Assembly: GCA_016793635.1 (NCBI GenBank)
Contig: JAEUMD010000024.1
Location: forward strand, 29,993 to 93,992
Source of the DNA: Hyphomicrobiaceae bacterium
GTDB lineage: Bacteria; Pseudomonadota; Alphaproteobacteria; Rhizobiales; Hyphomicrobiaceae
Reading direction: 5' to 3'
DNA: 64,000 bases
The translations under genes and the position numbers were made by a program. Shown here piece after piece: positions 3,117 to 18,111 of the stretch. The notes below the pieces were generated by a model that had not been told where the DNA came from, searched no databases, and saw only the letters and a program-made list of their open reading frames with translations. The stretch's first letter is position 1. Every line of letters starts with the position of its first letter.

Positions 3117-3179
3117 TAAGTCGTTGATTTTGTGGTGCCGCTTGCGTGACTCGAACACGCGACCCCATCATTACGAATG
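3117..3179. repeat. attL: 63-bp direct repeat, displaced tRNA-Thr 3' half
   Basis: Identical over 63 bases to 18049-18111. It contains the tRNA-Thr(CGT) sequence from the anticodon loop through the encoded CCA plus about 16 bases of downstream flank. The tRNA 5' half is absent here, so this copy is not a working tRNA. It is the chromosomal att remnant left when the element supplied a new 3' end to the gene at the other side. Confidence 0.93.
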
Positions 3180-3273
3180 CCGAAACTGATGATGTTTTGT
3201 GATGTCGGTAAACGTTAAGTAAACCGACTTAATGATCTGGATCGCTTACTCTTTCTTCGATGACGCCGGTAAT

Positions 3274-3308
3274 TCGGGCGACGTGCAAATGCAATTCGCG
3301 TCGCCCGA
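3274..3308. promoter_or_regulatory. 10-bp perfect inverted repeat upstream of the integrase
   Basis: Arms TCGGGCGACG (3274-3283) and CGTCGCCCGA (3299-3308) are separated by 15 bases, which themselves contain the palindrome TGCAAATGCA. The repeat lies between attL and the integrase start at 3345. A second, shorter one, GTCGGT/ACCGAC, is at 3204-3228. They could be operator or integrase arm-type/accessory sites; the sequence alone does not say which. Confidence 0.5.
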
Positions 3309-3344
3309 TAATTTACCCCGGCATTACCCGAACGGAGCGATCCC

Positions 3345-4709
3345 ATGACGAAACGGCAGGCGAGACAGCGCATCACCGAACGCATGGTTTCGAAGTGGTG
3401 CAGGAAGCCCGCGCACGCGGCGGCGCGTGATTATTTCGACTCCGACGTTGTTGGGCTCTGTCTCAAAGTGCAGCCGACCGGCGCGGCGTCGTGGTGCTTC
3501 CGTTATGTCATCGGCAAGACGCAGCGGCGCCTGACACTCGGCGACGCCAAGGGGCTATCCGTCGAGGGCGCCCGAAAAGCCGCGCGGGTCACACTGGCGG
3601 TGATCGCCGAGGGGCGTGATCCAGCGGCCGAGAAACAGGCCCGCCGCCACGCCGAACGCGAGTCAACCGTCCATTATCCTGCAATGGTCGAGCTGTTCAT
3701 ACGCCGCCACGGCATGGTCAAGAATCGCCGTTGGCGCGATCAGGCGCGGACGCTCGGCTTGCGGCTCACGTGGATCTCGGCGCGGCGCTTGAATGATCCC
3801 AGACCCGGCGACCCGGCTCCCGAGTTCGAGCCCGTCGCGGGCTCTCTGGCCGAGCGCTGGCTTCGGACGCCGGTCCGCGAGATCACCCGTGCCGACATCG
3901 CGGCAGCGGTGCAGGATGCGATGGCGCTCGGCGACGGGAAGGGCGCTGCCGCCAATACGCGGTTGGCGCAACTCAAGAGCCTCTTTAGCTGGCTGCACGC
4001 GCAAGGCTTCGTCGACGCGCATCCGTGCGAGATGCTGCCTCCTCCGGCGCCGCACAACGAGCGGGAGCGCGTCCTATCGCTCGATGAGATCCGGGCGCTA
4101 TGGGCCGCGACGGCGGCGCTCGAAGCGCCCTACCGGCAATTCGTTCGGGTTTTGGCGCTCACCGGACAGCGGCGCTCCGAGGTTGCTCAGATGCGCTGGG
4201 CGGAGATCGCGGGCGATACATGGATAATCCCGGCGGCACGCGCAAAGAACGGCGACGCTCATGCCGTGACGCTATCGCCGCTCGTGCTGGCCGAGCTGGC
4301 GTCGCTGTCGAAGAACGGCCCGCACGTCTTCACGTCGAGCCCGACCGGCGCGACGGCGATACAAAATTTCTCGGACATTAAAGAAGCTCTCGATCGCAAC
4401 ATGCCTCCTCCGCGGGCCAATGACGACGGCGAGGAAATCGGCTGGACGTTTCACGATCTTCGCCGGACCGCGGCAACCGGCATGGCTGATCTCGGCGTGC
4501 TGCCGCATGTGATCGAGGCCGTCTTGAACCATCGCTCGGGCCGCGTCTCAGGAATTGCCCGCACCTACAATCGCAACCCGTATGAGCGCGAGAAGCGAGC
4601 GGCGCTCGACGCATGGGCCGCACGTGTCGCCGAGATCGTCAGGGGTGCTGGCGGCGTGCGCTTGGTGCCTTCAAACATCGTAGCGCTGGGCCGATCGGCA
4701 TCGGCATAG
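3345..4709 (+). CDS. Tyrosine-type site-specific integrase
   Basis: A 454-residue integrase of the family with an N-terminal DUF4102-type arm-binding domain (about residues 8-95, including the F-D-x-D-V-x-G-L-C-L-K-V start and the T-L-G-D segment). A core-binding domain follows, then a catalytic domain at about 245-430. Catalytic residues are visible: Arg276 in T-G-Q-R-R-S-E, His370 and Arg373 in H-D-L-R-R-T, and the nucleophile Tyr408 in R-T-Y-N. The set is complete, so the enzyme looks active. It sits 165 bases inside attL and is read into the element, as in tRNA-targeting islands. It would catalyse recombination between the element att and the tRNA-Thr gene. Confidence 0.95.
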   Translation: MTKRQARQRITERMVSKWCRKPAHAAARDYFDSDVVGLCLKVQPTGAASWCFRYVIGKTQRRLTLGDAKGLSVEGARKAARVTLAVIAEGRDPAAEKQARRHAERESTVHYPAMVELFIRRHGMVKNRRWRDQARTLGLRLTWISARRLNDPRPGDPAPEFEPVAGSLAERWLRTPVREITRADIAAAVQDAMALGDGKGAAANTRLAQLKSLFSWLHAQGFVDAHPCEMLPPPAPHNERERVLSLDEIRALWAATAALEAPYRQFVRVLALTGQRRSEVAQMRWAEIAGDTWIIPAARAKNGDAHAVTLSPLVLAELASLSKNGPHVFTSSPTGATAIQNFSDIKEALDRNMPPPRANDDGEEIGWTFHDLRRTAATGMADLGVLPHVIEAVLNHRSGRVSGIARTYNRNPYEREKRAALDAWAARVAEIVRGAGGVRLVPSNIVALGRSASA

Positions 4710-4757
4710 CGCGCGTCTGTTGCGTCTCGCTTCTCGTCTGAGTTTCCAAAACAGAAA

Positions 4758-4779
4758 CCCCGGCCGTTGAGGACCGGGG
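4758..4779. terminator. Small hairpin after the integrase gene
   Basis: CCCCGG/CCGGGG stem with a 10-base loop. Read on the minus strand it is followed by a T-rich run, so it resembles an intrinsic terminator for leftward transcription more than for the integrase. No leftward gene was recognised nearby. Weak call. Confidence 0.3.
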
Positions 4780-4793
4780 CGCTGTAGGACCGA

Positions 4794-4841
4794 GCGAATC
4801 GCATCGATCGTCGTGTGGCAACGCGATCAGATGCGATTCGC
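4794..4841. promoter_or_regulatory. 12-bp perfect inverted repeat upstream of the winged-helix gene
   Basis: Arms GCGAATCGCATC (4794-4805) and GATGCGATTCGC (4830-4841) are perfect and 24 bases apart. The 9-mer CGCATCGAT also occurs as a direct repeat at 4800 and 4839. It lies about 110 bases before the start of the winged-helix gene at 4955. This could be an operator or a replication-initiator binding site. Confidence 0.5.
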
Positions 4842-4954
4842 ATCGATTCTGCAAGAGGTCGAGGCTTGCCCAATCCCCGGAACGACGCTTTCCGAGGCAC
4901 GGGAGAGCTTTGCTCGGCGCCCTTCCTTCGCGGCTCACAACGCGAGGAATGCAC

Positions 4955-5617
4955 ATGCAACAACTCGGAAACCTCTTCTCTCCCGCCACGCCGCGGCCGT
5001 CACGCTGGGAGCGCAATCGCTTCCGCAACGGGGCGCAATTCATCGACCCGGCCGCCGTCGCCACGCCGCTCGATCGGAACCAGCGGGCGAAGCTGATCTA
5101 TCTGGCCGAAGCTCTTGAGAGGCGCACAAAGCCTCGTGGAAGGCGAAACGGCGTGCTCGGGTACATCGGCCTCGCCGTGTTGAAGGCGCTGCTACTGCGC
5201 TTCGCCAACGCGAAGACCGGCGCTTGCTATCCGTCAATCACACAGCTCTGCGCAGTCACCGGGTTATGCCGTGCGGCCGTCTGTGACGCGCTCGCCAGAT
5301 TGGAGCGGTGCGGCATCATCAGAATAACTCGCAGGATCGTTCGCACGGCAATTGAGCGCGTATCGCCCGTGACAGGTGCGCTTCAGAAATTCGTCGGCGT
5401 CGTTCAAACAAGCAACGCCTACAGTTTCTCCGTGGATGCACATTCGGACATGGCAGCTGAAGCCGTGGAGATGCTGCCGCCAGCGAATGGGCGGCCGTTT
5501 CCTGCTAGGCGCCAACGCTCGCTTCTCGATAATCTGTTGAACAGTCTAGCCGAGTCGTCCTGGAAGGGTGGAACAGACAAATCGGTTTCCGAGAGAAGAA
5601 GAAAGTCGCCAGATTAA
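4955..5617 (+). CDS. Winged-helix/HTH protein of the replication module
   Basis: A basic 220-residue protein. A central winged helix is visible around residues 70-115, where P-S-I-T-Q-L-C-A-V-T-G-L-C-R-A-A-V fits a helix-turn-helix followed by a wing with L-x-R-C-G-I-I-R-I. This layout is common in initiator-like or regulatory proteins of plasmids and prophages. The ATG at 4955 is chosen because GAGGA at 4944-4948 is correctly spaced; an in-frame ATG at 4949 is too close. It sits between the integrase and the RepA-like helicase, so a role as initiator or replication regulator is likely but not shown. The long basic C-terminal tail lacks recognisable features. Confidence 0.65.
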   Translation: MQQLGNLFSPATPRPSRWERNRFRNGAQFIDPAAVATPLDRNQRAKLIYLAEALERRTKPRGRRNGVLGYIGLAVLKALLLRFANAKTGACYPSITQLCAVTGLCRAAVCDALARLERCGIIRITRRIVRTAIERVSPVTGALQKFVGVVQTSNAYSFSVDAHSDMAAEAVEMLPPANGRPFPARRQRSLLDNLLNSLAESSWKGGTDKSVSERRRKSPD

Positions 5618-6031: not shown

Positions 6032-7657
6032 ATGAACGCGAGTAATTCACTTACGCCTATGCCGCACATCGGCATCGATATCGCCGCGGGCGAGGCACTG
6101 AACCACATATCACCCCGCCTGTTTAGTGATTTTCGGCGGCTGTGCTGGGATCGAGAAGAGCGACATTTCCCACAAACCGTGCTTGAAGCGCGCAACGCAC
6201 TCAAGACCGTCTATGGCGACGGCGAGGACGGCTTTGAGAGATACCGGAGCTGGTTGCGGCGCGACGGCGAACTCTTCGACAAGTTGGGGGGCGATATCGG
6301 TATCAGCGCCTCATGGAAACGCGCATCCGGCCCCGCCTACACGCAAGCCGAAGCGTTTGACCAGATCGACAAGCTCGCCGCCGCCTCGCTCGACGTTCTC
6401 GACTTCAAGGTCAACGATGAGCGCCAGAAGCAAGCTGAAGCCGAGCAGGTTGAGGCGCAGAAATGGCTTGCCGCGAACCCGGAAGAATTGCTGGCCTACG
6501 ACGACGAAACCGGCGAATCGTTCGCATGGCGTTTGAAAGCCCCGGCGAATGACACGGCGCCCGAGCCGACGTACGGATCGCGCCGCATGTCTGATATCGA
6601 AGAAAAGCCGATTAGTTGGCTTTGGGAAGATCGCATCGCGCGGGGCAAGATCACCCTCATAGGCGGCGTCCCGAAACTGGGAAAGTCGCAGCTCTCATGC
6701 GCATTCACAGCGGCCGTGACGACCGCGGGACTATGGCCGGATGGAACACGCGCGCCGCTTGGATCTGTCGTGCTCATAACCGCCGAAGACGATGCCGCCG
6801 ATACGATCCGGCCGCGGCTTCGAGCTGTTGGGGCCGATCTTAGCCGGGTGCATCTGTTCGACTACGCCGTCCGGGGAGGAAAGAATCAGCAGTTCGATAT
6901 CGGGGCTCACACGGGCAATCTTCGGGCGATGATCAAGGATATCGGCGACGTGAAACTCGTCGTGATCGACCCGGTGCTGGCCTATATGGGCAAGGCGGAC
7001 AGCCACAAAAACGCGGACGTTCGCGGCGCTCTTGTCGGGCTTCAGACCCTCGCCGCGGAGCTGGGGATCGCCGTCATTCTGATCACTCACACTAACAAGA
7101 ACGACGCTGGCGGGCAGTCCGCTATGAACCGGCTTTCAGCTTCGGGCGCGTTCTCCGGCGTCGCGCGGGGCATTTGGCTCGGCGTGAAAGATCCAGACGA
7201 TGAGACCGGCGAGCGTCGTCTGTTCGTGCCCGTTGGCGCCAACATTGGCAACGATCGCGAGGGCTTCGCCTTCAGGATCGAAAGTGTCGACCTTGGGAAT
7301 GGTATCAAGACGTCGAGAGTGGTCTTCGAGGCCGCGGCTGTTCAGGTCGACGCCGACGAGCTTGTCTCAGCGCAGCGGCGGGACGGAGCAGCCGCAGAGG
7401 CAGAGACGCTGCTTCGGGCCGAGCTGGCGAACGGGGAGCGGCCGGAGAAGGCGCTCCGAGAAATTGCTGACCAAGAGGGAATTTCCCTGATCACGCTACG
7501 CCGAGCTGCGAAGAAAATCGGCGTGCTGAAGCGCAAGCCGGGAAAAAATTGGCTCTGGAAATTGCCTTCCACCGGGGCGTCGGACCCGTCCGAGGAATTT
7601 TCGGAGTTAATTCGGGAGGCCGAAGAGGAACACGGTGATCATAATCCTACGTTGTGA
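6032..7657 (+). CDS. RepA-like AAA_25 replicative helicase
   Basis: The 541-residue protein has a RecA-fold ATPase core like plasmid RepA/AAA_25 helicases. Walker A is G-G-V-P-K-L-G-K-S at 211-219, Walker B V-V-I-D with Asp313, and an I-T-H-T-N-K sensor segment lies near 355. The N-terminal 200 residues are charged and may dock on DNA or a primase. The C-terminus has a helix-turn-helix-like stretch (about 475-505, E-K-A-L-R-E-I-A-D-Q-E-G-I-S) often seen in phage and island helicases. The start at 6032 follows AGGAGA at 6019-6024. It would be the replicative helicase of the excised element. The TGATCA repeat cluster begins over its last codons, a usual position for an origin. Confidence 0.85.
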   Translation: MNASNSLTPMPHIGIDIAAGEALNHISPRLFSDFRRLCWDREERHFPQTVLEARNALKTVYGDGEDGFERYRSWLRRDGELFDKLGGDIGISASWKRASGPAYTQAEAFDQIDKLAAASLDVLDFKVNDERQKQAEAEQVEAQKWLAANPEELLAYDDETGESFAWRLKAPANDTAPEPTYGSRRMSDIEEKPISWLWEDRIARGKITLIGGVPKLGKSQLSCAFTAAVTTAGLWPDGTRAPLGSVVLITAEDDAADTIRPRLRAVGADLSRVHLFDYAVRGGKNQQFDIGAHTGNLRAMIKDIGDVKLVVIDPVLAYMGKADSHKNADVRGALVGLQTLAAELGIAVILITHTNKNDAGGQSAMNRLSASGAFSGVARGIWLGVKDPDDETGERRLFVPVGANIGNDREGFAFRIESVDLGNGIKTSRVVFEAAAVQVDADELVSAQRRDGAAAEAETLLRAELANGERPEKALREIADQEGISLITLRRAAKKIGVLKRKPGKNWLWKLPSTGASDPSEEFSELIREAEEEHGDHNPTL

Positions 7658-7763
7658 TTATGATCATCTATGATCATCTATGATCTTCAAGCAGTGTGCT
7701 GACGATGATGATGATCAATGGTGATCAATGGTGATCATGATCAATGGACGTGATGATGATCAC
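7636..7763. repeat. TGATCA repeat cluster, candidate iteron origin
   Basis: Eight TGATCA palindromes lie in 128 bases (7636, 7661, 7671, 7712, 7722, 7732, 7738, 7758), with a degenerate copy at 7681. They form two 10-bp ladders: TGATCATCTA at 7661 and 7671, and TGATCAATGG at 7712, 7722 and 7738. The first copies form a perfect 11-bp inverted repeat (7636-7646 with 7656-7666) over the helicase stop codon. Ten-base phasing puts the sites on one face of the helix, as in iteron origins. Position after a RepA-like gene supports an origin; a transcription control region is the alternative. Another copy overlaps the start codon at 8527. Confidence 0.65.
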
Positions 7764-7814
7764 CATCCCGAGCCCCGGCGAAAATCAATAAATTAAATTC
7801 GCGGCGCGTGAGCT

Positions 7815-8351
7815 TTATTCTTTTTTGCTGAAGCCGGCAACCGCCCAGTAGACGGCAGAACCGAGCAAGAGGACGATCAACGGTGGAACAACGCCTGTCG
7901 CTACGCTGATTGCGACCAATCGAAATGGCTTCGCTGGGTCCGAAATGTAGACCGGCGATCTTTCAGCATAATCAATTTGCTGGTGATAAATTAACCGATC
8001 AGCGAATGTTGCACTCGCCCCCGGCGGAGGCGGGATGTGCGTTTCGGAGAGTAGCTTTCTGATCGCCTCCCGGTCCACAGCCGGATGTTGAAGCGGCGCG
8101 GCAACTTGTTTCATGATGTCGATCAGGTCGGTTAACAAGGGTTTTCGGGCGGCGTCTTCGATCATCCCTCGGAGGGTGTTTTCATCGACGTCGAGGGGCT
8201 TGAACACCTTCCGCGATAGGGCAAGCTTTTCTTCCGCACGGAGAGCGGAGAACTCGTCGACGACCTTCGGAATGAAAGCTATGCCCGCAATGGCGATCCA
8301 AAGCGCACTGGCAACGAGCCACAGTCTCGATAGTCCCCGCTTCATATTCAT
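7815..8351 (-). CDS. Small membrane protein with two transmembrane segments
   Basis: About 178 residues when started at the ATG at 8351 (ATG at 8345 is equally possible). One hydrophobic helix lies near the N-terminus (L-W-L-V-A-S-A-L-W-I-A-I-A-G-I-A-F) and one near the C-terminus (V-V-P-P-L-I-V-L-L-L-G-S-A-V-Y-W). Between them is a charged loop of about 110 residues that would lie in the periplasm. It is the only leftward gene of the element and faces the TGATCA cluster. I do not recognise the family. Superinfection exclusion or release are possible jobs for such a protein in a phage-related element, but nothing in the sequence proves this. Confidence 0.6.
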   Translation of the reverse strand: MNMKRGLSRLWLVASALWIAIAGIAFIPKVVDEFSALRAEEKLALSRKVFKPLDVDENTLRGMIEDAARKPLLTDLIDIMKQVAAPLQHPAVDREAIRKLLSETHIPPPPGASATFADRLIYHQQIDYAERSPVYISDPAKPFRLVAISVATGVVPPLIVLLLGSAVYWAVAGFSKKE

Positions 8352-8526
8352 CTGATCCGCTCGTGCGCCGTTGTCGCCGATTGATCCTGCCTCGCTTTCG
8401 CTTGCTTCGTAAGCGGCGGCAGGGCATCCATCCACTGCCTTCAGCCGATGTGGCCGTTAGCGGCTTTCCCTCGCTTGGAGCCGCGTCCGTGGTGTGCTTG
8501 ACCCAAGTGGGCCGGGAGAAGTGATC

Positions 8527-8823
<297 letters not shown>

Positions 8824-9422: not shown

Positions 9423-10196
9423 ATGGACAGCAACGTGAAAGATGAGCTGGCGACGGCCGGCCAAAATCAGAAAGTATTCGATGCAGACGAGGCGGCGGCT
9501 CTGCTTGAGCTTAGCCAGATGCAACGGAAATTTGCTGACGCGGTGCTGAGGGGAGCCACCTACGTAAAAGCCGCTAAGCTTGCCGGATACTCTGGCGAGG
9601 GAAATAACCTTCGTTCTACTGCAAGTAAAGTCGCGAAGTCGCCGGCCGTCCGGCAGTACATGGCGCTGGCGAAGTCCGGCGGCGCCGCCGTCCCCGACGA
9701 TCCCGCGGACCGCGAAGAGCTGAAGCGCACGCTCAGTCGGCACTTGCGAGGCGGTGACAAGGCGACGTCGATCCGCGCCGCCGAAGTGATCCATCGAATT
9801 AACGCGGCCGAGCTGGAAGAGAAATCCAAAGCCCCGGACCCTCCCGACGTTGTTCTCGACAAATTAAGCGAACTCGGAGAGCTGGGCTGCTGCATCGCCG
9901 TCCTACTCGCCCGGAAACATCGGCTCGCCTGGAACCCGCCGACCGCGCTCGCGCCCGATGCCGAGAAGCGCATGGTGGCGGAGCTGAAGACCCAAATGAC
10001 CGAGGCGGACCGCCGCCGCGTCGAGCACTTCGCCGACTTGCAGAACAATTTCTCTCAGAATTTCCGCGCCAACGACGATGGCTCCTCGGAAGGCGCGGAA
10101 CAAGGCCGGGCGTCGGGGCGAGGGGCGGTTCCTGCCTCGACCCCGGCGCCTGGGCCTGTTGGTCACCCTCAATTCAGAAAGTCGTACCTCCGATGA
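9423..10196 (+). CDS. Small terminase-like DNA-binding protein
   Basis: A 257-residue protein. Residues 30-80 read Q-R-K-F-A-D-A-V-L-x-G-A-T-Y-V-K-A-A-K-L-A-G-Y-S and then S-P-A-V-R-Q-Y-M. This matches the pattern of the Terminase_2/HTH small-subunit family, where the helix-turn-helix reads the packaging site. A later segment, H-L-R-G-G-D-K-A-T-S-I-R-A-A-E-V-I, fits the oligomerisation part. The C-terminal 40 residues are disordered (Gly, Ala, Pro). The ATG at 9423 is chosen over the longer frame because it lies right after a strong promoter. It starts an operon of overlapping genes. In satellites, a private small terminase redirects helper packaging to satellite DNA. No large terminase is present. 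Confidence 0.6.
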   Translation: MDSNVKDELATAGQNQKVFDADEAAALLELSQMQRKFADAVLRGATYVKAAKLAGYSGEGNNLRSTASKVAKSPAVRQYMALAKSGGAAVPDDPADREELKRTLSRHLRGGDKATSIRAAEVIHRINAAELEEKSKAPDPPDVVLDKLSELGELGCCIAVLLARKHRLAWNPPTALAPDAEKRMVAELKTQMTEADRRRVEHFADLQNNFSQNFRANDDGSSEGAEQGRASGRGAVPASTPAPGPVGHPQFRKSYLR

Positions 10197-10534
10197 GACA
10201 GCTCAAGATCCGCGTCCCGCAGCAAAAGCAGGACATGAATTCCACCTTCGAAGGCAGGGCGCCCGTCGACCCGGCGCAGCCCCGCGGCAGCTTGCCCAAG
10301 CATCTGGCCGCCGTGAGGCTCCCGAACGGCCGGACGCTCGGACAGCTCAGCGGGGCCGATATCGCTCGGCTCCTACAGCTCGCGGGCGTCCCCGGCGCCG
10401 ATCGAGCACCCGAGATGGGGCGGCAACAGCTCGCCGAGCTGATGACGAGCACGCTGGACAGCATCGGCCGGGAAGCGGCGGAACGCGCCATCGCGAATTG
10501 GCTGAACCAGAATTTCGCGGAGGTTCTTCGATGA
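10193..10534 (+). CDS. Small unknown protein of the virion-like operon
   Basis: A 113-residue protein whose start overlaps the stop of the terminase-like gene (ATGA), so the two are translationally coupled. It has a disordered basic N-terminus, a segment L-P-N-G-R-T-L-G-Q-L-S-G-A-D-I-A-R-L near the middle, and a helical C-terminus (about 85-113). No known family recognised. Position between a small terminase and ejection-like proteins suggests a structural or packaging job. Confidence 0.6.
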   Translation: MRQLKIRVPQQKQDMNSTFEGRAPVDPAQPRGSLPKHLAAVRLPNGRTLGQLSGADIARLLQLAGVPGADRAPEMGRQQLAELMTSTLDSIGREAAERAIANWLNQNFAEVLR

Positions 10535-10773
10535 GCCTCCGGCGCCTCGACGGATTGCCCGATGATGCCCGGCCGTCGATCGACGGAGCGGACTTCGCCG
10601 AGATCGTCGAGAGCCATCGCCGGTTTCATCGGGACATCTACAGTCATGCGGAACGCCATGATCTCGACCGGCGCCGCTACCGCACTGTGATCGAGAAGAG
10701 CCGCGAAGCCTCAGCCGATGCAATCGATCTGTTGCTTCGCATGTGGGTTCCAGACCCCGACTGGCCCAATTGA
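10531..10773 (+). CDS. Small charged helical protein of the virion-like operon
   Basis: An 80-residue protein, again starting inside the stop of the previous gene (ATGA at 10531). It is rich in Arg, Asp and His and mostly helical (S-H-R-R-F-H-R-D-I-Y-S-H), with a C-terminal W-V-P-D-P-D-W. It is unrelated to anything I recognise. The tight overlap supports it as a real member of the operon. Confidence 0.55.
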   Translation: MSLRRLDGLPDDARPSIDGADFAEIVESHRRFHRDIYSHAERHDLDRRRYRTVIEKSREASADAIDLLLRMWVPDPDWPN

Positions 10774-10786
10774 GAAGGGTTACGAC

Positions 10787-11899
10787 ATGGGAATCGGAGA
10801 CGGCTTCTTTGATGGCTTCTTTCTCGGCGGTGTTCAAGAGGGCATGTCCGAGCGCCGGGAATTCGAGCAAAAGAAGGCTATCCAAGACGCGGCGAATGCT
10901 CGCGCCAAGGAAGAGCTTGGATTGAGCAAGAAGAAGTTCGCCCATGCACGGCAACAGGCCGAACAGGCGGCGAAGCTCGAAATGAAGGATCGATCCGAGA
11001 AGCACTTGAGCGCAATGCTCGCCGACATTGAAGAGACGACGAAAGCCCTACGGCAAGCTGGCGCCAGTCAGGATCAGATTGAACAGACCCTCGCGCCCTA
11101 CGCGACGAAGGCTCTTCAGTTCGGCACGAAGTTCGGCGCCGATCCTGAACTACTCGGCGCACGTCTCGGCGCGATCGTCAGTCGCCCGGCCGCCCCGCAG
11201 ACCGATATCGGAAAGCTCGAAGCGGATCGCCGCGCCGGCTACATCGACGAAGCGACCTATCGCAAGAAGCTCGACGCGATCGGCTCCGGCGGGATCACGA
11301 TCAACACCGGAGAGAAGGGCGCGAACAAGTTCGCCGAAGAGCTGAATAAGGGCATCGCTGGCGAGTTCATCGAGAAGCGCAAGAGCGCAATCGACGCCAT
11401 CGCGTCGATGCAATCGACCGCCGAGGCCCGGAAGCTGCTCGATGCCGGCATCATCACAGGCACGGGCGCCGACTATATCTTGCAGTTCGGTAAGTCGCTG
11501 CAAACCGCGGGCGTCACTCTGGCGCCGGAAGCGATCGCCAACACGGAAGCATTCGTCGCCACGCGTGCCGCCGAAGTTGGCCGGATCATCAAACTGTTTG
11601 GCGCCGGCACTGGTCTGAGCGACGCCGATCGCGAGTTTGCTACGCGAGCCGCGGCAGGATCGATCACGCTCACCGAAGCCTCGATCAAGCGCGTGCTCGA
11701 AATCAATCTGCGGGCGAGCCGCAACGTCATCAAGGCTTACAACGCCGACGTATCGCAGCTCGATCCGTCGATCCTCCCGTTCGATCTTCGCTTGCCCGAA
11801 GCGCCGGCCGCCGCAACCGGCGAAGCTCCGATCCGCAAGACCATCAACGGCGTGACATACGAGAAGCGCGACGGCACTTGGTTTACCGTCAGCAAGTGA
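10787..11899 (+). CDS. Phage internal/ejection-like protein (about 370 residues)
   Basis: The start ATG 10787 follows GAGAAGGG. The N-terminus is a Gly-Phe-rich amphipathic stretch (G-I-G-D-G-F-F-D-G-F-F-L-G-G), then a long charged coiled coil to about residue 100. The C-terminal half has F-G-A-G-T-G-L-S-D-A-D-R-E-F and then S-I-T-L-T-E-A-S-I-K-R-V-L, patterns I associate with internal-core or ejection proteins of podoviruses. The last 25 residues form a small I-N-G-V-T-Y-E-K-R-D-G-T-W segment, often a terminal beta motif in phage proteins. Such proteins are packed inside capsids and enter the host with DNA. The assignment is from remembered patterns, not a search. Confidence 0.5.
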   Translation: MGIGDGFFDGFFLGGVQEGMSERREFEQKKAIQDAANARAKEELGLSKKKFAHARQQAEQAAKLEMKDRSEKHLSAMLADIEETTKALRQAGASQDQIEQTLAPYATKALQFGTKFGADPELLGARLGAIVSRPAAPQTDIGKLEADRRAGYIDEATYRKKLDAIGSGGITINTGEKGANKFAEELNKGIAGEFIEKRKSAIDAIASMQSTAEARKLLDAGIITGTGADYILQFGKSLQTAGVTLAPEAIANTEAFVATRAAEVGRIIKLFGAGTGLSDADREFATRAAAGSITLTEASIKRVLEINLRASRNVIKAYNADVSQLDPSILPFDLRLPEAPAAATGEAPIRKTINGVTYEKRDGTWFTVSK

Positions 11900-11908: not shown

Positions 11909-13861
11909 ATGGACACTCGTGAAGCCCCCGGAGGGCGCGTTACAGACCCGAAGCTGATCGAGCAACTGGAAAGCGCCGCCCTCGGCGAACCCGTTCAGGA
12001 CGAGCAATTGATTCGTCAGCTCGAAGGGCTGGCGCCGATCACTCCCGCCGATCGAGACATGAACGATCAGCAAGAGTTTTTCGCGCGTGCCCGTCGCCAG
12101 ATCAAAGGTGAGGAACCGCCGACCGTCGACCCGATGGACCCGAAGACGGGTAGCACACTCGCCGCGCCCAAGCGCATCATCAGCGCGGCGACCGAGGCGG
12201 CGAAAGAAGCCTTCACGGAAGGCGGCGAGCTTGGCATCGATGACGCCGGCAACGTCATCGTGAAAGCGGGCTCTGCATTGGCCGATGCGGTCTTGCGGAG
12301 CGTGAACGCAGTTGTACGCGGCGGCGCTGCGGCAGCCGGGCAGACGGCTCGCGAGGCGGGCGCTTCGCAGGGTATGGCGGCACGCCTGGAACGCGATCTC
12401 GTCGGCATGACGGAAAGCACCGCGGGTGCCACGCCTGGTGCTGCACTCAAAGTCACGCCGAAGACCGCCACGGGCGCCAGCTCTGCGGCACGTGCGGCCG
12501 ATGACACTCAGTCCGCTTTGCGCGCTGCGGAACGCCTGGGCGTGGAAGTTCCAACCGGCGCCGTTGGCAACATCAAGCCGCGTGTTGCCGGTGCTCTCGC
12601 GGACACCCCTGTAGTTGGGGCCTCGCTCGCCAACGCGGCGAAAACGGCAACAGACACACTCGAAGGGACTGTTGCTCGCATCGCCGATGAGCTGGGCGGT
12701 GCCACGATCGCGAGCGCTGGCGACACTACGAAGGACTCACTCGTAACCTGGGTGCAGGAAGTCTCGAAGAAGCGTGCCGCTGAAATCTTCGCACCCGTTG
12801 AAGCGCTCGTGAAGGACACGCGAGCGCCGCTCACTCGCACGGGCGTTGCGCTTCGTGATCTCACGAAGCAAGCGAAGGCGTCGGGCCTTCCGCCGCCGTC
12901 GATCGTCGATCAGTTCCAGGACGTGCTCGACGCCGCGCAAGAGGCCGGCGGCATGACGTGGAGTGGAATGCAAAGGCTTCGCACCGAGATTGGCGACCGT
13001 CTGAGCGGCAACATCGTGCCAGAGCCCGGTCTGTCGAAACGCGCGTTGAAGGCCGTCTATGCGGCGCTGAGCGATGATATCGAGTTCCTGACGCGCAAGG
13101 CCGGCGGCCCGGCTGGCGTGGCAGAGTGGAAGAATGCGAACGAGCTGTTCAAGTCGGACGTCGCCACGCGCCGGAGTGCCATCGAGAAGATCGTCGGCAA
13201 GAACGGCGATGCTTCCGCCGAGACGGTTGCGGAACGCATTCTCACGATGGCCAGCGACAAGCGCGGCGCCGATCTGGAACGGCTTCTCGACGTGCGCTCG
13301 ACGCTCGACAACGCCACATGGGATCAGCTCGCATCGGCGGCGCTGGGGCGCATGGGACAAGGCAAGGATGGTTTCAGTCTTGCGGCGTGGCGGACGGCTT
13401 ACGCTAAGTTGAGCGACCCTGGTAAGAAGCTTCTCTTCTCCGATGATCACCGCGCCGCGCTCGACGATATCGACGAGGTTGGCCGCGTCTTCGAGCGCCT
13501 GACGAGGCTCGGGAACCCTTCCGGCACTGGCCGCATGAACGCGGTCATCGGCGGCGCGTCTCTCGCGTCGATCAATCCGCTGTACCTGCTCGGAACCGTG
13601 TTGACCGGCGCCGCTATGTCGAAGCTGCTCGCGCGACCGGCGACCGCAAAGGCGGCTGCCGATTGGAGCAAAGCCTACGCCAACGCCGCGGGCAAGACGA
13701 TCACCGAAGACACCTTCAACGCGGTCAAACGTGCGGGCCTCAGGTTGCGCTCTGTGCTCGACGCGGAAGGCATCGAAGTGCTCGCGGTTCATCCTGGGAT
13801 GGCCGCCGGTCCGGCGATCAGATCGTTCAACGAAACCCCCGAAAGCGAAGAGCAGGAGTAA
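11909..13861 (+). CDS. Large phage internal/ejection-like protein (650 residues)
   Basis: The largest protein of the element, Ala-rich and mostly helical. Residues about 80-140 form an Ala/Gly-rich amphipathic stretch, and the middle is long coiled coil. A segment near 480 reads W-D-Q-L-A-S-A-A-L-G-R-M-G and continues into L-S-D-P-G-K-K-L-L-F, a pattern found in DNA-ejection or internal virion proteins of alphaproteobacterial podoviruses. Near residue 555 there is a hydrophobic Gly-Ala stretch (L-Y-L-L-G-T-V-L-T-G-A-A). It starts nine bases after the previous stop with a GAGG site. Function in DNA delivery is inferred from composition and neighbours. Confidence 0.5.
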   Translation: MDTREAPGGRVTDPKLIEQLESAALGEPVQDEQLIRQLEGLAPITPADRDMNDQQEFFARARRQIKGEEPPTVDPMDPKTGSTLAAPKRIISAATEAAKEAFTEGGELGIDDAGNVIVKAGSALADAVLRSVNAVVRGGAAAAGQTAREAGASQGMAARLERDLVGMTESTAGATPGAALKVTPKTATGASSAARAADDTQSALRAAERLGVEVPTGAVGNIKPRVAGALADTPVVGASLANAAKTATDTLEGTVARIADELGGATIASAGDTTKDSLVTWVQEVSKKRAAEIFAPVEALVKDTRAPLTRTGVALRDLTKQAKASGLPPPSIVDQFQDVLDAAQEAGGMTWSGMQRLRTEIGDRLSGNIVPEPGLSKRALKAVYAALSDDIEFLTRKAGGPAGVAEWKNANELFKSDVATRRSAIEKIVGKNGDASAETVAERILTMASDKRGADLERLLDVRSTLDNATWDQLASAALGRMGQGKDGFSLAAWRTAYAKLSDPGKKLLFSDDHRAALDDIDEVGRVFERLTRLGNPSGTGRMNAVIGGASLASINPLYLLGTVLTGAAMSKLLARPATAKAAADWSKAYANAAGKTITEDTFNAVKRAGLRLRSVLDAEGIEVLAVHPGMAAGPAIRSFNETPESEEQE

Positions 13862-13866
13862 CAGAC

Positions 13867-14172
13867 GTGGCAAAGAGCAAATTCGGCGAGTCCCTGGAAG
13901 GCTTGAGCGGCGATCAGTTCGCTCGCGTGCAAGCCGAGATCATCGCCGAGGCCACCCGCCGCGGCACGTCGGCAACCGATTGGGACCGCGTGGCGCACAT
14001 GAGCGAGCACGAGTTCAGCAACTTCGTGCAGCGCGCATATCAGTCTAACGAAGTCGGCCGTGCAACCCGCGAGCTGGAACGCGCGGCGAAGGCGCACGGC
14101 AAGGTGCTCGCAGATCCGACGCCGGCCGCGACCGAGAAGAAGACCGAGGATGACCATGGCGACTCCGAATAA
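13867..14172 (+). CDS. Small unknown protein of the virion-like operon
   Basis: A 101-residue charged protein with a GTG start at 13867, five bases after the previous stop. Helical, with F-G-E-S-L-E-G-L-S-G-D-Q-F at the start and an acidic-lysine-rich tail. Its 3' end overlaps the next gene, which starts at 14156. No family recognised. Confidence 0.55.
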   Translation: MAKSKFGESLEGLSGDQFARVQAEIIAEATRRGTSATDWDRVAHMSEHEFSNFVQRAYQSNEVGRATRELERAAKAHGKVLADPTPAATEKKTEDDHGDSE

Positions 14173-14929
14173 CGAAACCCCGGCTGGCCCGGACATTGCA
14201 AGCCCGGCGGCCCCGCAACAGAGCGCCCCAACAGACGATCTTGATGGGCTGTTGCGGGAGTTCGACTCGGGCTCTGGGAGCGCGAAGGCGCCGCAGGGCG
14301 GATCAACCGCACGTGCGGCGCCTGAGCCGGTATCGCCGGGCAACGCTCTGGAAACGCCGCCGACCTTCGCCGATCGGATCTTGCAGCTCGCGACGGAGCA
14401 CGATCGCCGTCTCGCAGAAGCGCTCTCCGGCGTGCGTCACGATGCCGACGAGAGCGCCGCCGAGCGCAGCGACCGTCTCACTCAGTTGGAACAGTTCGCC
14501 GCCGGCATCGAGCACGAGCGTTTCGTTCAGCGCGAGCGCGCCGACGCCGAGGCGGTGTTTTCCCATGGATCTGAGATCCTGGGAGAAGTCGCGCCGTGGC
14601 TACCCGGCGACTACGCGAAGACTTGGTTGCTCAACGAAGCTCGGACAGACGGCGATCTCGCCGAAGCCTGGGAAAGCCGGTACGAATCACCCGAGCACGC
14701 GGCCCGTGCGCGGCAGGAGATCGGCCGGGCGATGAAGCGCTTCAATGCCCATCTTCGCAGCCTCCCTGACCCCGTGTTGACGAGCCAACGCGAGATCGTC
14801 TCCGCGTCTGTCCGCGGCGCCGCTCTCGATAAGGCCCCGAAACCGGCGCCGCTTCGTTTCGACGGAATGAGCGATTACGACTTCGCCGGCACGATCGAGA
14901 AGAAGTTCGGCTTCAGGCCAAGGGTGTAA
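14156..14929 (+). CDS. Unknown acidic protein, scaffold-like composition
   Basis: A 257-residue protein with start ATG 14156 after GAGG (an in-frame ATG at 14150 is too close to that site). The first 75 residues are disordered (Ala, Pro, Ser, Asp). The middle is charged coiled coil, followed by a conserved-looking segment with P-W-L-P-G-D-Y-A-K-T-W-L. The tail ends F-D-G-M-S-D-Y-D-F-A-G-T-I-E-K-K-F-G-F. A disordered start with a coiled middle and a short ordered tail resembles scaffolding or assembly proteins, but that is only a composition argument. It overlaps the previous gene by 17 bases. Confidence 0.5.
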   Translation: MATPNNETPAGPDIASPAAPQQSAPTDDLDGLLREFDSGSGSAKAPQGGSTARAAPEPVSPGNALETPPTFADRILQLATEHDRRLAEALSGVRHDADESAAERSDRLTQLEQFAAGIEHERFVQRERADAEAVFSHGSEILGEVAPWLPGDYAKTWLLNEARTDGDLAEAWESRYESPEHAARARQEIGRAMKRFNAHLRSLPDPVLTSQREIVSASVRGAALDKAPKPAPLRFDGMSDYDFAGTIEKKFGFRPRV

Positions 14930-14938
14930 GGCAACAAG

Positions 14939-15223
14939 ATGAGCATTCGCACGCGATCGGTCACACTCTGCGCTGAGCACTGGACACCGCTCCACACGGG
15001 CACATCGGCCCTCGTGCAGTTCGGCGCCGCTGGCACCATGCTTCTCCGCGTGTGTCCGGCCGGAGATCCGGCGCCGGCCGGATCGGGGCGCTCAGGGTCA
15101 CTCGTAATCGTTGGTCACGAGGGCAACGGCATGGCTCCGATTATCCAGATCGCACTGCACCCTGGCGACACGGCGTATGGTCGCCTCGTTTCCGGCGAAG
15201 GGTCTGTGACGATCTGCGGATGA
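14939..15223 (+). CDS. Small beta-rich protein, possibly structural
   Basis: A 94-residue protein with strand-rich composition: alternating hydrophobic residues, many Gly and Thr, few charges. Its start is nine bases after the previous stop. Small beta-rich proteins at this position in phage operons often decorate capsids or form spikes. No family recognised, and this is only a suggestion. Confidence 0.5.
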   Translation: MSIRTRSVTLCAEHWTPLHTGTSALVQFGAAGTMLLRVCPAGDPAPAGSGRSGSLVIVGHEGNGMAPIIQIALHPGDTAYGRLVSGEGSVTICG

Positions 15224-15369: not shown

Positions 15370-15609
15370 ATGAACCTCGAATTCGCTTTCGCCCCGAACC
15401 CGCGGGATTGGTCTTTCGGGTACTGCACCGCTTTCGCCGATCTCGGCATGGCGTCGCTGGTCATCGGCCCGTTGCACGTGCAATTCGGCTGTGACGTCGA
15501 CCGGGCCGAAGAGCTGGCGCCTGCACTGAGATCCCCGCGGACGGCGCTGCGGGCGTGGATGGCAGAGCGCTGGGCGCCGTCCGGCCGCGGAGCCCAGGAA
15601 ATGTCCTAG
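15370..15609 (+). CDS. Small unknown protein before the partition module
   Basis: A 79-residue protein beginning M-N-L-E-F-A-F-A-P-N-P-R-D-W, preceded by GGAG just before the start. The intergenic DNA before it is AT-rich and probably contains a new promoter. Its last codons already contain the first CCTAGG box (15605) of the partition array. Function unknown. Confidence 0.5.
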   Translation: MNLEFAFAPNPRDWSFGYCTAFADLGMASLVIGPLHVQFGCDVDRAEELAPALRSPRTALRAWMAERWAPSGRGAQEMS

Positions 15610-15682
15610 GATATAATCCTAGTATTTACTGTCTCAAAACTACAAATCGATATAGGATTGATCCCTAGGACTAGCACCTAGG
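15605..15682. promoter_or_regulatory. CCTAG box array upstream of parA: candidate centromere/operator
   Basis: CCTAG(G) boxes at 15605 and 15618 are 13 bases apart, and boxes at 15664 and 15677 are again 13 apart, with a further CTAG at 15671 between them. The last box overlaps the AGGGA ribosome site of parA, so a protein bound here would block translation or transcription. In type Ib partition systems, iterons upstream of the ATPase gene serve both as centromere and operator, bound by the ribbon-helix-helix partner. CTAG is a rare tetranucleotide in most bacteria, which makes the cluster stand out. Confidence 0.7.
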
Positions 15683-15692
15683 GATTTTTCCT

Positions 15693-16382
15693 ATGAAAAC
15701 GCCGATGCCGGATCGCCAGTGCCGTGTCATCGCATTAGCCAGCGCCAAGGGCGGCACGGGCAAGACGACGTTGACCGCTTGCCTCGCCGTCGAAGCCGCC
15801 AAGTCGGGGCGCGTGGTCATGATCGACGCCGACCCGCAACAGTCGCTCACGCTCTGGCACCGCGCCCGCTTGGCCAACGATGACGAGGGCGAGAACCCCG
15901 GCTTGATGCGCGCTGGAACAGAGCCGCTGGCCGAGAAAGTCGAGCTTCTGCGGAAGGCAGGCGCCGATTGGGTGTTAATCGATCTGCCGCCCGGAGACGT
16001 TGACTTGCTCGAAGCCGGGATTGCGGCGGCGGATTATATCGTCATCCCGATCCGCGCCAGCAGTCTCGACGTCCAGGCGATCGGCCCCACCACCGATCTC
16101 TGCAGCGACTACGTGCGACCGTTCGGGATCGTCACCAACGCCGTGGAGCCGAGCTGGAAGATCAGCTCAACAGTCGCCCCGTTCTGCAAGGCGGCGGCTC
16201 TTCATCTGTTGAAGGCGACGGTCACTCAACGCCAAGCCTACACGGGCGCAATGGTGGCCGGCGCCACCGGCCCCGAATATCACGATGCCCGACAAGCGAA
16301 AGTCTGTGCGACCGAGATCAAAGTCCTATGGGATGAGATCCGCGCCGAAGTCCTAGCATTGTGTCCTAGCAATAATTCCTAG
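15693..16382 (+). CDS. ParA-family partition ATPase
   Basis: A 229-residue ATPase with the deviant Walker A of ParA/MinD proteins, K-G-G-T-G-K-T at residues 19-25, whose signature lysine is Lys19. The A' motif D-A-D-P-Q-Q-S is at 45-51, followed by a V-L-I-D-L-P-P-G Walker B. There is no N-terminal helix-turn-helix, so it is the short, type Ib kind that works with a small DNA-binding partner. The start at 15693 follows AGGGA inside a CCTAGGG box. Three CCTAG boxes at 13-base steps lie over its last codons. It would segregate the excised circular element, or position it before packaging. Confidence 0.9.
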   Translation: MKTPMPDRQCRVIALASAKGGTGKTTLTACLAVEAAKSGRVVMIDADPQQSLTLWHRARLANDDEGENPGLMRAGTEPLAEKVELLRKAGADWVLIDLPPGDVDLLEAGIAAADYIVIPIRASSLDVQAIGPTTDLCSDYVRPFGIVTNAVEPSWKISSTVAPFCKAAALHLLKATVTQRQAYTGAMVAGATGPEYHDARQAKVCATEIKVLWDEIRAEVLALCPSNNS

Positions 16383-16461
16383 GAAGTATCGAGCCATGAA
16401 AGTGAAGACGCCTCAACAGGATGATCTGACCCAACTGCTGAACCTAGGATTTAGTCCTAGG
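16352..16461. promoter_or_regulatory. CCTAG box arrays at the parA 3' end and inside the next gene
   Basis: Boxes start at 16352, 16365 and 16378, each exactly 13 bases apart, and span the parA stop codon. Two more at 16443 and 16456, again 13 apart, lie inside the coding sequence of the downstream gene. A single CTAG at 16498 may belong too. The same box and spacing as upstream of parA show they bind the same protein. A centromere built from arrays on both sides of parA is unusual. Confidence 0.65.
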
Positions 16462-16707
16462 GCTTCGCTGGGCAACACTACCAAGGACCGGAAGGCTCTA
16501 GCCGGTAGCCGTGCGATCCCTGCCGGGGACAAGCGCCGGAAGCCCGCCGAGCAACGCCGCGACGTTCAGATCAACTTCAATGGCACCGCGGACCTTCGCG
16601 ACCTGATCGCCGACTTGGCACAGCAACACAAGTGCAGCCGAGCCGAGCTGATCGATCGCGCCGTGCGGGCGTTCGCCGGGAAAGGCCAGGGGAAGCGCCA
16701 ACCATGA
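16396..16707 (+). CDS. Ribbon-helix-helix-like partner of ParA (ParB/ParG role)
   Basis: A 103-residue basic protein. The first 55 residues look flexible, as the N-terminal tails of ParG and omega proteins do. The C-terminal part, D-V-Q-I-N-F-N-G then A-D-L-R-D-L-I-A-D-L-A and S-R-A-E-L-I-D-R-A-V, has the strand-helix-helix order of a ribbon-helix-helix DNA-binding domain. It starts 13 bases after parA, and the next gene overlaps its stop. It is the best candidate to bind the CCTAG boxes, two of which lie in its own coding sequence. Confidence 0.65.
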   Translation: MKVKTPQQDDLTQLLNLGFSPRASLGNTTKDRKALAGSRAIPAGDKRRKPAEQRRDVQINFNGTADLRDLIADLAQQHKCSRAELIDRAVRAFAGKGQGKRQP

Positions 16708-17861
16708 TCCGAACCCTTTTGCTCGCCTTCGGTCTGATCGGCGGTGCCGTTGTCGTGGCGCTGGTCGCCCGGCACGGCTTCCTGACCGCAGACACCCCCC
16801 TGGACGGCTATGCGCTTGCGGCGCTGTTGTCGCTCATAGCGATCGGCGGGCTCGTTGGACACGCCGTCGCGGCGCATCTGTGGCCGGTCAGCCGGGGAGC
16901 TGCGGCGGGCGTATTCCTGCTTGCCACGGCCGCTCTGTTGCTGAACCTCTCGACGTCGTTCGAAGCGATCATCGGGCGGGCGGCAACCGGCGAAGCCGAG
17001 CGTTCGCAGCGGATCAAAGACCGGGCCGCCGCGGAACGCGAGCTGGCCACGCTCTCGGCTGAGCTGTCCGGTTTGCGGGATCATGTGCCCGTGTCCGCCG
17101 ACGCTGCGAAGGCGGCTCGTGACCGGGCGACGGCGGCGGCCGAACAGCGCGAAGCCGAGTGCGCCAAGCGTGGCAACAGGTGCCGCGACCGGGAAGCCGA
17201 CGAACGGGCAGCGCTCGAAACGCTGGCGACGATCGAGCGCGACCGCGCATTCTCGATCCGCCGGGCCGATCTGGAAAGCCGCACGGCGAAGCTCAGAACG
17301 TCGCTGGCCGAGATCCCGGCGACCGGGCACCCCAACGTCATGGCAGCCGGCATCGCCCGTCTGTTCCGTCTCCCTGAAGCCGATGCGCTGAGCGCCGCGA
17401 CGTGGCACAAGCTGGCCATCGCCGGTTTGGTCGAGCTGCTGATCGCAGCAGCGTTCTTCGCAGCCGAGGTTTCGCGGAATGGGAGTGCAACCAACCGGCC
17501 CGAACAGACGCTCGATCGGCCGGAGTTCACGCAAAATCATTCCCCGGCCCTAACCCCGGCGCCGATCGTCGAGCCGGCGCCCGTGAAAGAGATCGACCCT
17601 AAGCCGGTGATCGCGTTCCTCGCCGATCGCGTCGAAGCGCGCCGGGGCAGCCGTGTCAGTCTCGCCGACCTTTACCGGGCGTATGTGGCGAGCGAGGCGG
17701 ACAGGGCGCTCGGAGCTGCCGAGTTCGCAGCGGCGCTGCGGACGATCTGTGACCATGCCAATTGGGACTTCGAGGCGGGCGACGGGGATATGATCTTCCT
17801 CGCCGGACGGCGGTTGCGTCCTACCCGTCCCGCCTTAGAGCATGTGAGACGCGCCAGCTAG
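16704..17861 (+). CDS. Membrane protein with coiled coil and C-terminal winged-helix-like domain
   Basis: A 385-residue protein translationally coupled to the RHH gene (ATGA). Three membrane segments lie in residues 1-85, then a long Ala/Arg/Glu coiled coil (about 90-170) and a fourth membrane segment near 235-250. A Pro-rich linker with repeated Pro-Ala-Pro follows. The last 80 residues (from K-P-V-I-A-F-L-A-D-R-V-E) look like a compact alpha/beta domain of winged-helix type, as seen in phage and plasmid proteins. It may link the partition complex or element DNA to the membrane. Family not recognised; the role is inferred from operon position. Confidence 0.55.
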   Translation: MIRTLLLAFGLIGGAVVVALVARHGFLTADTPLDGYALAALLSLIAIGGLVGHAVAAHLWPVSRGAAAGVFLLATAALLLNLSTSFEAIIGRAATGEAERSQRIKDRAAAERELATLSAELSGLRDHVPVSADAAKAARDRATAAAEQREAECAKRGNRCRDREADERAALETLATIERDRAFSIRRADLESRTAKLRTSLAEIPATGHPNVMAAGIARLFRLPEADALSAATWHKLAIAGLVELLIAAAFFAAEVSRNGSATNRPEQTLDRPEFTQNHSPALTPAPIVEPAPVKEIDPKPVIAFLADRVEARRGSRVSLADLYRAYVASEADRALGAAEFAAALRTICDHANWDFEAGDGDMIFLAGRRLRPTRPALEHVRRAS

Positions 17862-17874
17862 AGGGAGAAGGGCC

Positions 17875-17949
17875 ATGCACGAAGACGACGAAGACGCAAT
17901 CATCGCACTGGACGGGGGCTTTCCGGGGGACGATGAAGCTGCCGAGTGA
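17875..17949 (+). CDS. 24-residue acidic peptide
   Basis: A tiny frame with a very strong ribosome site (GAGGGAGAAGGG) and ATG at 17875. It encodes 24 residues of which ten are Asp or Glu and none is Lys or Arg. It starts 13 bases after the membrane protein gene and is the last frame before attR. The ribosome site argues that it is translated. Acidic mini-proteins can act as DNA mimics or antirepressors; this is speculation. Confidence 0.4.
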   Translation: MHEDDEDAIIALDGGFPGDDEAAE

Positions 17950-18048
17950 CGCCGCCGAGTGAATCACCTAACCTGCCACGAGGCGCCCCGCGGCTGGTTT
18001 TACCCCAAGTGGCGCTCAGGGTAAGAAATCCAGGGTCTATGGTTCGGA

Positions 18049-18111
18049 TAAGTCGTTGATTTTGTGGTGCCGCTTGCGTGACTCGAACACGCGACCCCAT
18101 CATTACGAATG
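18049..18111. repeat. attR: 63-bp direct repeat inside tRNA-Thr
   Basis: Identical to 3117-3179. Here the repeat is continuous with the tRNA 5' half, so the element carries its own 3' half of the tRNA gene and rebuilds it on integration. The repeat begins in the anticodon loop, where tyrosine integrases that target tRNA genes commonly cross over. Confidence 0.93.

What the first reader, a model, noticed from the sequence alone, without database searches (positions are those of the whole stretch)
3117..18111. A 14.9-kb satellite-like element in tRNA-Thr(CGT) with exact 63-bp ends
A perfect 63-bp repeat marks both ends, and the integrase keeps all the catalytic residues I can check. Gene order is integrase, regulator/initiator, helicase, repeat origin, small-terminase-like operon, partition. 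This is the plan of phage-inducible islands, but with a partition module and in an alphaproteobacterium, where I know of few described examples. The element may still move, because its integrase, ends and replication genes look whole.
Basis: partly seen in the sequence, partly recalled or inferred. Interest (0 to 1): 0.85.

Follow-up and report, generated by a model that had tools for sequence, protein, structure and literature searches.

The report
Phage satellite carrying DNA-ejection genes
A 14.9-kb mobile element sits in a threonine tRNA gene and looks like a parasite of a short-tailed phage; unusually, it seems to bring its own versions of two proteins that such phages use to eject DNA into a cell.

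Summary
In detail: an exact 63-bp repeat bounds 14,932 bp at the 3' end of tRNA-Thr(CGT), and a same-genus genome has the uninterrupted site. Genes look intact: integrase, initiator-like HTH, AAA_25 helicase, repeat-rich origin candidate, small-terminase operon, ParA module.

Inside the terminase operon, 10787-11899 and 11909-13861 are relatives of the last two ejection genes of P22-type podoviruses, in phage order. No large terminase, portal, capsid, tail or lysis gene was found in the 17 ORFs scanned. A second element (G411; 14,764 bp, tRNA-Ser) shares the terminase operon and plan but carries tail-spike and tail-fibre relatives instead. A 3,066-bp contig of the same assembly encodes a large terminase and P22-type portal: a possible helper trace.

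Best reading: a satellite of a short-tailed phage with a conserved packaging operon plus swappable delivery genes. By published criteria it is not a PICI. Helper use, excision and packaging are inferred. G411 is the only clear relative among 397 genomes of the order, own included.

The parts
3117..3179 (.). distal att copy (displaced 3' fragment of tRNA-Thr plus 16 nt)
   Evidence: exact 63-bp direct repeat; empty-site comparison
18049..18111 (.). tRNA-side att copy, overlapping the intact tRNA gene
18065..18140 (-). tRNA-Thr(CGT), integration target
   Evidence: ARAGORN
3345..4709 (+). tyrosine integrase, 454 aa, Arm-DNA-bind_3 + Phage_integrase
   Evidence: Pfam 1.2e-15 and 7e-15; phrog_1 8.2e-50; catalytic motifs
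4955..5617 (+). HTH_36 protein, candidate replication initiator or regulator
   Evidence: Pfam HTH_36 3.1e-8; phrog_1032 replication initiation 1.5e-6
6032..7657 (+). AAA_25 helicase-type ATPase
   Evidence: PF13481 4.6e-30; partial matches to plasmid AAA ATPases in 13 records
7636..7762 (.). origin candidate: eight TGATCA palindromes
   Evidence: 8 in 150 bp, random maximum 3; single-strand fold of 7630-7770 z -4.4
7815..8435 (-). ORF of unknown function
   Evidence: no family below E 0.1
8527..8823 (+). small ORF, unknown, N-terminal (ND)n run
   Evidence: no PADLOC family
9423..10196 (+). small terminase subunit (TerS), start of the operon
   Evidence: phrog_51 1.2e-8, phrog_641 3.6e-8; relative in G411, 35% over 169 columns; 24 of 50 rows listed in the viral fold search are named terminase small subunit, none below 1e-3
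10193..10534 (+). g7, small protein conserved in the G411 element; start overlaps terS stop
   Evidence: 36% over 89 columns, 2.6e-8
10531..10773 (+). g8, small protein, weak relative in G411; start overlaps g7 stop
   Evidence: 30%, E 0.011; alignment
10787..11899 (+). g9, ejection protein (penultimate; P22 gp20 position, name from recall)
   Evidence: 39% over 218 columns to ppBjS10J-1 WAX24468; DSL-LC05 WJZ48153, directly upstream of a gene annotated putative DNA transfer protein
11909..13861 (+). g10, ejection protein (last; P22 gp16 position, name from recall)
   Evidence: phrog_770 DNA transfer protein 1.2e-7; Pam5 2e-42, RHph_Y1_10 putative injection protein 2e-37, VSN-002 7e-12
13867..14172 (+). 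g11, small protein, possible relative in G411 (alignment only)
   Evidence: 26% identity in alignment; not tested by BLAST in the right frame
14150..14929 (+). g12, helical protein conserved in G411; candidate assembly or capsid-size factor (inferred)
   Evidence: 34% over 103 columns, 4e-15; low-confidence all-helical model
14939..15223 (+). small ORF, unknown
15370..15609 (+). small ORF, unknown
15604..15690 (.). CCTAG boxes upstream of parA, pairs 13 bp apart (candidate operator/centromere)
   Evidence: fold of 15596-15700 z -4.5
15693..16382 (+). ParA partition ATPase
   Evidence: phrog_164 4.8e-33; NF041546 1e-36, below its cut-off
16351..16462 (.). second set of CCTAG boxes, 13-bp steps
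   Evidence: fold of 16345-16470 not unusual, z -1.0
16396..16707 (+). small protein, candidate ribbon-helix-helix partner of ParA (fold judged by eye)
   Evidence: phrog_3887 transcriptional regulator 0.0012
16704..17861 (+). membrane and coiled-coil protein (judged by eye) of the partition trio
   Evidence: relatives in G415, G241, G269

Best explanation
An integrated satellite of a short-tailed (P22-type portal) phage. Shown: clean tRNA ends, intact integrase, replication genes, small terminase, two ejection-protein genes in phage order, and no large terminase, portal, capsid, tail or lysis family in the 17 ORFs scanned. Inferred: a helper infection triggers excision; the initiator, helicase and TGATCA origin replicate the circle; ParA and its partner keep the excised circle from being lost; the element's TerS redirects the helper's large terminase to element DNA; g12 and the other conserved small proteins adjust head assembly; and g9-g10 are built into the heads in place of, or beside, the helper's last two ejection proteins, so that satellite particles inject with a satellite-made channel. 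The related element G411 keeps the packaging operon but carries a spike and a fibre relative instead, so delivery genes look like a swappable cargo on a constant packaging core.
For: Ends and target. TerS. g9 and g10 are relatives of ejection-position genes in named phages; two viral contigs of 42,995 and 45,554 bp carry both side by side in the same order. The element is about one third the length of those phages. Second element with the same core operon in the same order (terS, g7, g8-like, g11-like, g12), same plan and size, another tRNA. Its tail1 is 39% identical over 320 columns to the Pam5 tail spike and tail2 matches a tail-fibre family. Portal family phrog_156 occurs in 8 of 20 virus records with a g10 relative and in the window's own assembly.
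Against: No excision, replication, packaging or helper was observed. The helper trace is one 3,066-bp contig that could be contamination, and its gene in the terS position is of another family (phrog_8771), mildly against it being the phage whose TerS is replaced. G411 has no phrog_156 portal. In the five named phages and G007, g9 and g10 relatives never occur together: where one is found, the neighbour in the other's position is too different to match; only 2 of 140 viral loci show both. Relatives of the element are rare: g12 in 2 of 397 genomes of the order, own included; TerS in 1 of 385 of the class, own only. The first of the three ejection genes of such phages is missing. g12 has no assigned function. 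A prophage remnant could also keep terS and ejection genes.
Confidence: 0.6

Rival explanations
1. A decayed prophage of a podovirus that lost its large terminase, portal, capsid and tail genes and by chance kept terS and two ejection genes.
For: The kept genes are homologous to phage genes and two contigs show them in the same order. A relative in the same family, G007, carries portal, terminase and ejection genes of such a phage on a 282-kb contig, so probably integrated.
Against: The genes checked are open from start to stop and tightly packed, with start/stop overlaps. An element in another family of the order has the same size, plan and core operon but different virion genes. By tblastn TerS (E limit 1e-3) and g12 (E limit 0.1) matched no phage record. 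In the phages read, portal and capsid genes precede the ejection genes; here terS is followed by two small genes and then the ejection genes.
Confidence: 0.17
2. A satellite in which the ejection proteins act as a weapon: made in the infected cell, they enter helper virions or the envelope and spoil helper DNA injection, or block superinfection.
For: Only two of three ejection genes are present; g9 and g10 keep the conserved middle and C-terminal parts but differ at the N-termini, and g9 is shorter than its phage relatives. The G411 element carries adsorption genes instead, which could also interfere.
Against: Sequence does not separate interference from use. g9 has 370 aa against 417-528 in the four phages with it that were read, g10 650 aa against 598-692 in RHph_Y1_10, Pam5, L256 and L258 (1,061 in VSN-002, 1,401 in G007), so g10 is not cut short.
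Confidence: 0.13
3. A mobilizable or plasmid-like integrative element (IME) with partition and replication genes that picked up a few phage genes.
For: The ParA trio is shared with other islands, one of them (G241 contig C49) with a long ORF that I read as a relaxase from recall; the helicase partly matches plasmid ATPases (13 records, none over 80% of its length).
Against: No relaxase or conjugation family in the ORFs scanned (Pfam: 17 ORFs; NCBIfam: 10; the VirC1 match of ParA is a shared ATPase fold); the longest operon is a terminase and ejection operon.
Confidence: 0.08

Closest known systems
Phage-inducible chromosomal islands (PICIs)
   Same: int at one end, replication genes, optional terS, about 15 kb (PMC6092414, passages read)
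   Different: two virion (ejection) genes; no AlpA or MerR family hit in the 17 ORFs scanned; ParA module; podovirus-type virion genes
Capsid-forming PICIs (cf-PICIs)
   Same: satellite carries some virion genes and relies on the helper for the rest
   Different: cf-PICIs carry capsid, portal, connectors and both terminase subunits and depend on the helper for tails (PMC10690885, passages read); here none of those was found except terS, but ejection genes instead
MiniFlayer/MulchRoom Streptomyces satellites
   Same: MiniFlayer carries its own tail-fibre gene in a putative adsorption module, comparable to the G411 element
   Different: they encode capsid and packaging genes; siphovirus helper; no ejection genes mentioned in the passages read
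PICMIs
   Same: small satellite with excision and replication genes, dependent on helper particles (PMC10803314, passages read)
   Different: PICMIs lack identifiable packaging genes; this one has terS and ejection genes
P22/Pam5/RHph_Y1_10-type podoviruses
   Same: g9 and g10 are relatives of genes in their last two ejection positions
   Different: their large terminase, portal, capsid, tail and lysis genes were not found in the element

Membership tests
PICI (criteria in PMC6092414) | integrase, replication module and master regulator in conserved order | tested here: inconclusive
   integrase, HTH and helicase in order; the HTH protein may be initiator or regulator; no AlpA or MerR family hit in the 17 ORFs scanned
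[quoted passage not shown]
   two ejection-protein genes
PICI (criteria in PMC6092414) | size typically 12-15 kb | tested here: met
   14,932 bp
PICI (criteria in PMC6092414) | att site never used by prophages | tested here: inconclusive
   G002 has another integrase gene at the same tRNA-Thr; what it belongs to was not followed
PICI (criteria in PMC6092414) | phage-dependent induction and specific packaging | not testable with these tools
   needs infection experiments
cf-PICI | own major capsid, portal, large and small terminase | tested here: not met
   only terS found in the 17 ORFs scanned
phage satellite in the broad sense | no complete virion gene set, own integrase and replication genes | tested here: met
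   17 ORFs scanned
phage satellite in the broad sense | moves in helper particles | not testable with these tools
   possible helper contig C24 only
complete or remnant prophage | large terminase, portal and capsid genes, or fragments of them, inside the ends | tested here: not met
   none in the 17 ORFs scanned; a six-frame search for short fragments was not made
integrative mobilizable element | relaxase or conjugation genes | tested here: not met
   no relaxase family in the ORFs scanned; oriT not searched

The most novel reading that the evidence does not exclude
A family of satellites of short-tailed phages in which a constant TerS-to-g12 packaging core is combined with exchangeable virion-delivery genes taken from the lineage of their helpers: an ejection pair in one member, spike and fibre in another. 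Their particles would be chimeras whose adsorption or DNA injection is set by the satellite rather than the helper.
Probability: 0.35. Interest if true: 0.82.

Novelty: new variant of a known kind. Interest (0 to 1): 0.64.

Why it matters
The satellites in the passages I read take tails, or heads and tails, from a helper. An element that supplies its own ejection proteins, with a relative that supplies spike and fibre relatives, would mean that satellites can alter how a phage particle delivers DNA, and would make the role of podovirus ejection proteins testable through a natural replacement. I found no report of satellite-encoded ejection proteins in three full-text searches of open-access PMC: 1 paper, PMC13216270, the term only in its reference list; 1 paper, PMC6893505, again only in its reference list; 10 papers, of which PMC6092414 was read in passages and the others seen as listing only. 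Subscription papers and preprints were not searched.

Tried and rejected
A scaffold identity for g12: profile comparison with the Pam5 scaffold and the RHph_Y1_10 gene between portal and capsid gave nothing; the model is low confidence (pLDDT 57, pTM 0.31). g9 against the RHph_Y1_10 and Pam5 genes in its position: no similarity; against VSN-002 only 29 residues at E 0.002. PDB sequence searches of TerS, g9, g10, g12 and a PDB fold search of TerS gave nothing usable; for g9 only designed helical proteins.

Relatives by back-translated patterns: TerS, g10 and helicase singly in viral contigs gave none; the TerS alignment in genome contigs gave none. A hand-made TerS motif gave 72 viral stretches, 67 of them phage small terminases of a similar kind; a stricter one gave 0; a related one gave 4 genome stretches, none a TerS relative. 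Four weak TerS hits in the order (G272, G306, G330, G333; E 2e-4 to 8e-4) lie without other convincing genes of the element and are not counted as relatives; G333 has a ParA-like stretch nearby (2.7e-9), not followed. L270, a 15.5-kb viral contig with a g10 relative, is a phage fragment with structural genes by my reading of its ORFs.

The major-capsid family phrog_334 gave 0 of 2 genomes (G000, G411), but its control rang nowhere, so it says little. Contig C24 shares no notable DNA with the element (exact matches of at most 13 bp among those printed, one 17-bp match with a mismatch; the 17-bp exact match lies outside the element).
Full report
Observation. The window holds an exact 63-bp direct repeat at 3117-3179 and 18049-18111; a search of the assembly gave these two places only. 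The right copy overlaps the 3' 47 nt of an intact tRNA-Thr(CGT) on the minus strand. A same-genus genome, G001, aligns straight across the joined flanks (82% over 412 bp); the left part of that alignment is short and weak. Another same-genus genome, G002, has a different integrase gene at the same tRNA end, so the site is used more than once. Element G+C is 0.620 against 0.657 for the window to its right.

Gene content. Plus strand unless noted: integrase (3345-4709), HTH/initiator-like (4955-5617), AAA_25 helicase (6032-7657), palindrome-rich origin candidate (7636-7762), a minus-strand ORF (7815-8435), a small ORF (8527-8823), then the operon terS (9423), g7, g8, g9, g10, g11, g12 (to 14929), two small ORFs, and parA-g16-g17 (15693-17861) with CCTAG boxes 13 bp apart before parA and across its end. 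These are 17 chosen ORFs of the many mechanical ones. No large terminase, portal, capsid, tail, lysis or relaxase family was found in them with Pfam and PHROGs, nor with NCBIfam in the 10 scanned. PADLOC, 8 scanned, gave one weak hit, to the helicase (3e-4).

Ejection genes. g10 matches phrog_770 'DNA transfer protein' (1.2e-7). In 50,697 phage records it matches four: Pam5 (2e-42), RHph_Y1_10 (2e-37, annotated putative injection protein), VSN-002 (7e-12) and MW202867.1 (5e-4). g9 matches two: ppBjS10J-1 (8e-13) and DSL-LC05 (4e-7). In both, the g9 relative lies directly before another long gene, in DSL-LC05 annotated 'putative DNA transfer protein'; in RHph_Y1_10 the g10 relative is the second of two adjacent genes annotated as injection proteins. 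Against a simple picture: in these five named phages read and in the G007 stretch, g9 and g10 relatives never occur together. Of 140 viral loci collected with the g9 motif (120 loci, a capped list) and the g10 profile (20 loci), 122 match g9 and 20 match g10 at 1e-4; 2 match both (L256, L258), adjacent and in the order of the element. The 122 is largely by construction. None of the 140 loci matches any other protein of the window's element at 1e-4; 2 match the fibre-like tail2 of G411. The P22 names gp20 and gp16 for these positions are from recall.

Relatives of the element. TerS was sought in 397 genomes of the order (own included): 6 matched, one besides the own clearly, G411 (1.1e-15). The g12 profile found 2 of 397, own and G411. 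TerS profile: 1 of 149 in G411's family (itself), 1 of 385 in the class (own). In G411 the element runs from a 14-bp repeat before the integrase to the 3' end of tRNA-Ser(TGA), 14,764 bp. It has an integrase (23% to the window's, 4e-12), a protein that I read as HTH, an ATPase weakly similar to the window's helicase (4e-4), terS (35% over 169 columns), g7 (36% over 89), a weak g8 match (E 0.011) and g12 (34% over 103), in the same order; a g11-like protein rests on an alignment alone (26%). Instead of g9-g10 it has a 476-aa protein 39% identical over 320 columns to the Pam5 tail spike and a 298-aa protein of tail-fibre family phrog_11393 (3.6e-9). L256, which has both g9 and g10, also has a relative of the latter.

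Helper. In the own assembly, portal family phrog_156 hits contig C24 (1.5e-37), a 3,066-bp contig with a gene in the terS position, a large terminase read in two frames, and the start of a portal gene. Its portal matches 49 phage records (15 listed, several annotated P22-like portal). The same portal family is in 8 of 20 records with a g10 relative; of the 9 of these records of at least 40 kb, 6 have it. The contig may be contamination, its terS-position gene is of another family than the element's TerS, and G411 has no such portal. The only other large terminase that phrog_2 finds in the own genome lies in a gene-transfer-agent-like cluster on C15 (the likeness is from recall).

Partition trio. 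g17 has relatives in 3 other genomes of 397 (G415 one, G241 four, G269 two); a ParA relative is present in 5 of the 7 stretches read around them, and none of the 7 matches terS. It is a module shared among islands, and may keep the excised circle; that role is inference.

TerS model. The AF2 model (pLDDT 64, pTM 0.33) has no PDB match below 1e-3. In the viral library no match passes 1e-3 either and TM-scores are low, but 24 of the 50 rows listed are named terminase small subunit.

Literature, all as passages: PMC6092414 gives PICI criteria, including absence of structural genes. PMC10690885 describes cf-PICIs and the MiniFlayer tail fibre. PMC10803314 and PMC11389934 describe PICMIs and list other families. 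PMC6893505 notes that scaffolding proteins are largely helical. [quoted passage not shown] Searches showed no satellite with its own ejection proteins in open-access PMC text, as far as the two term hits and the listing tell.

Verdict. The element is best read as a satellite of a short-tailed phage with its own small terminase and two ejection proteins, related to a second element with other delivery genes. It fails one PICI criterion and is not filed as a PICI. Function is inferred from homology and layout.

Noticed in passing
G000:C15:58000-77000 (locus L109): Gene-transfer-agent-like cluster on the minus strand (large terminase, portal, capsid and further genes that I recognise from recall as RcGTA-like).
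   Followed up: partly
G000:C24 (locus L108, 3066 bp): Phage fragment with a terS-position gene, a large terminase split over two frames and a P22-type portal start; possible helper trace or contamination.
   Followed up: partly
L128 (G002:C6 near 150239): Another tyrosine integrase gene (by my reading) next to the same tRNA-Thr(CGT).
   Followed up: no
window 15604-15690 and 16351-16462: CCTAG boxes in 13-bp steps before parA and across its end.
   Followed up: partly
L014/L015 reverse strand (G411), about 17.8-18.8 kb of the joined 35-kb stretch: Up to three neighbouring small proteins with a motif resembling g7, perhaps duplicated.
   Followed up: no
L019:8297-8713 and 9226-9387 (G333): A ParA-like stretch close to a weak TerS-like stretch; not resolved.
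   Followed up: no
G241 (loci L120-L123): Four copies of the partition-trio membrane gene in one genome, one near a long ORF that looks like a relaxase.
   Followed up: no
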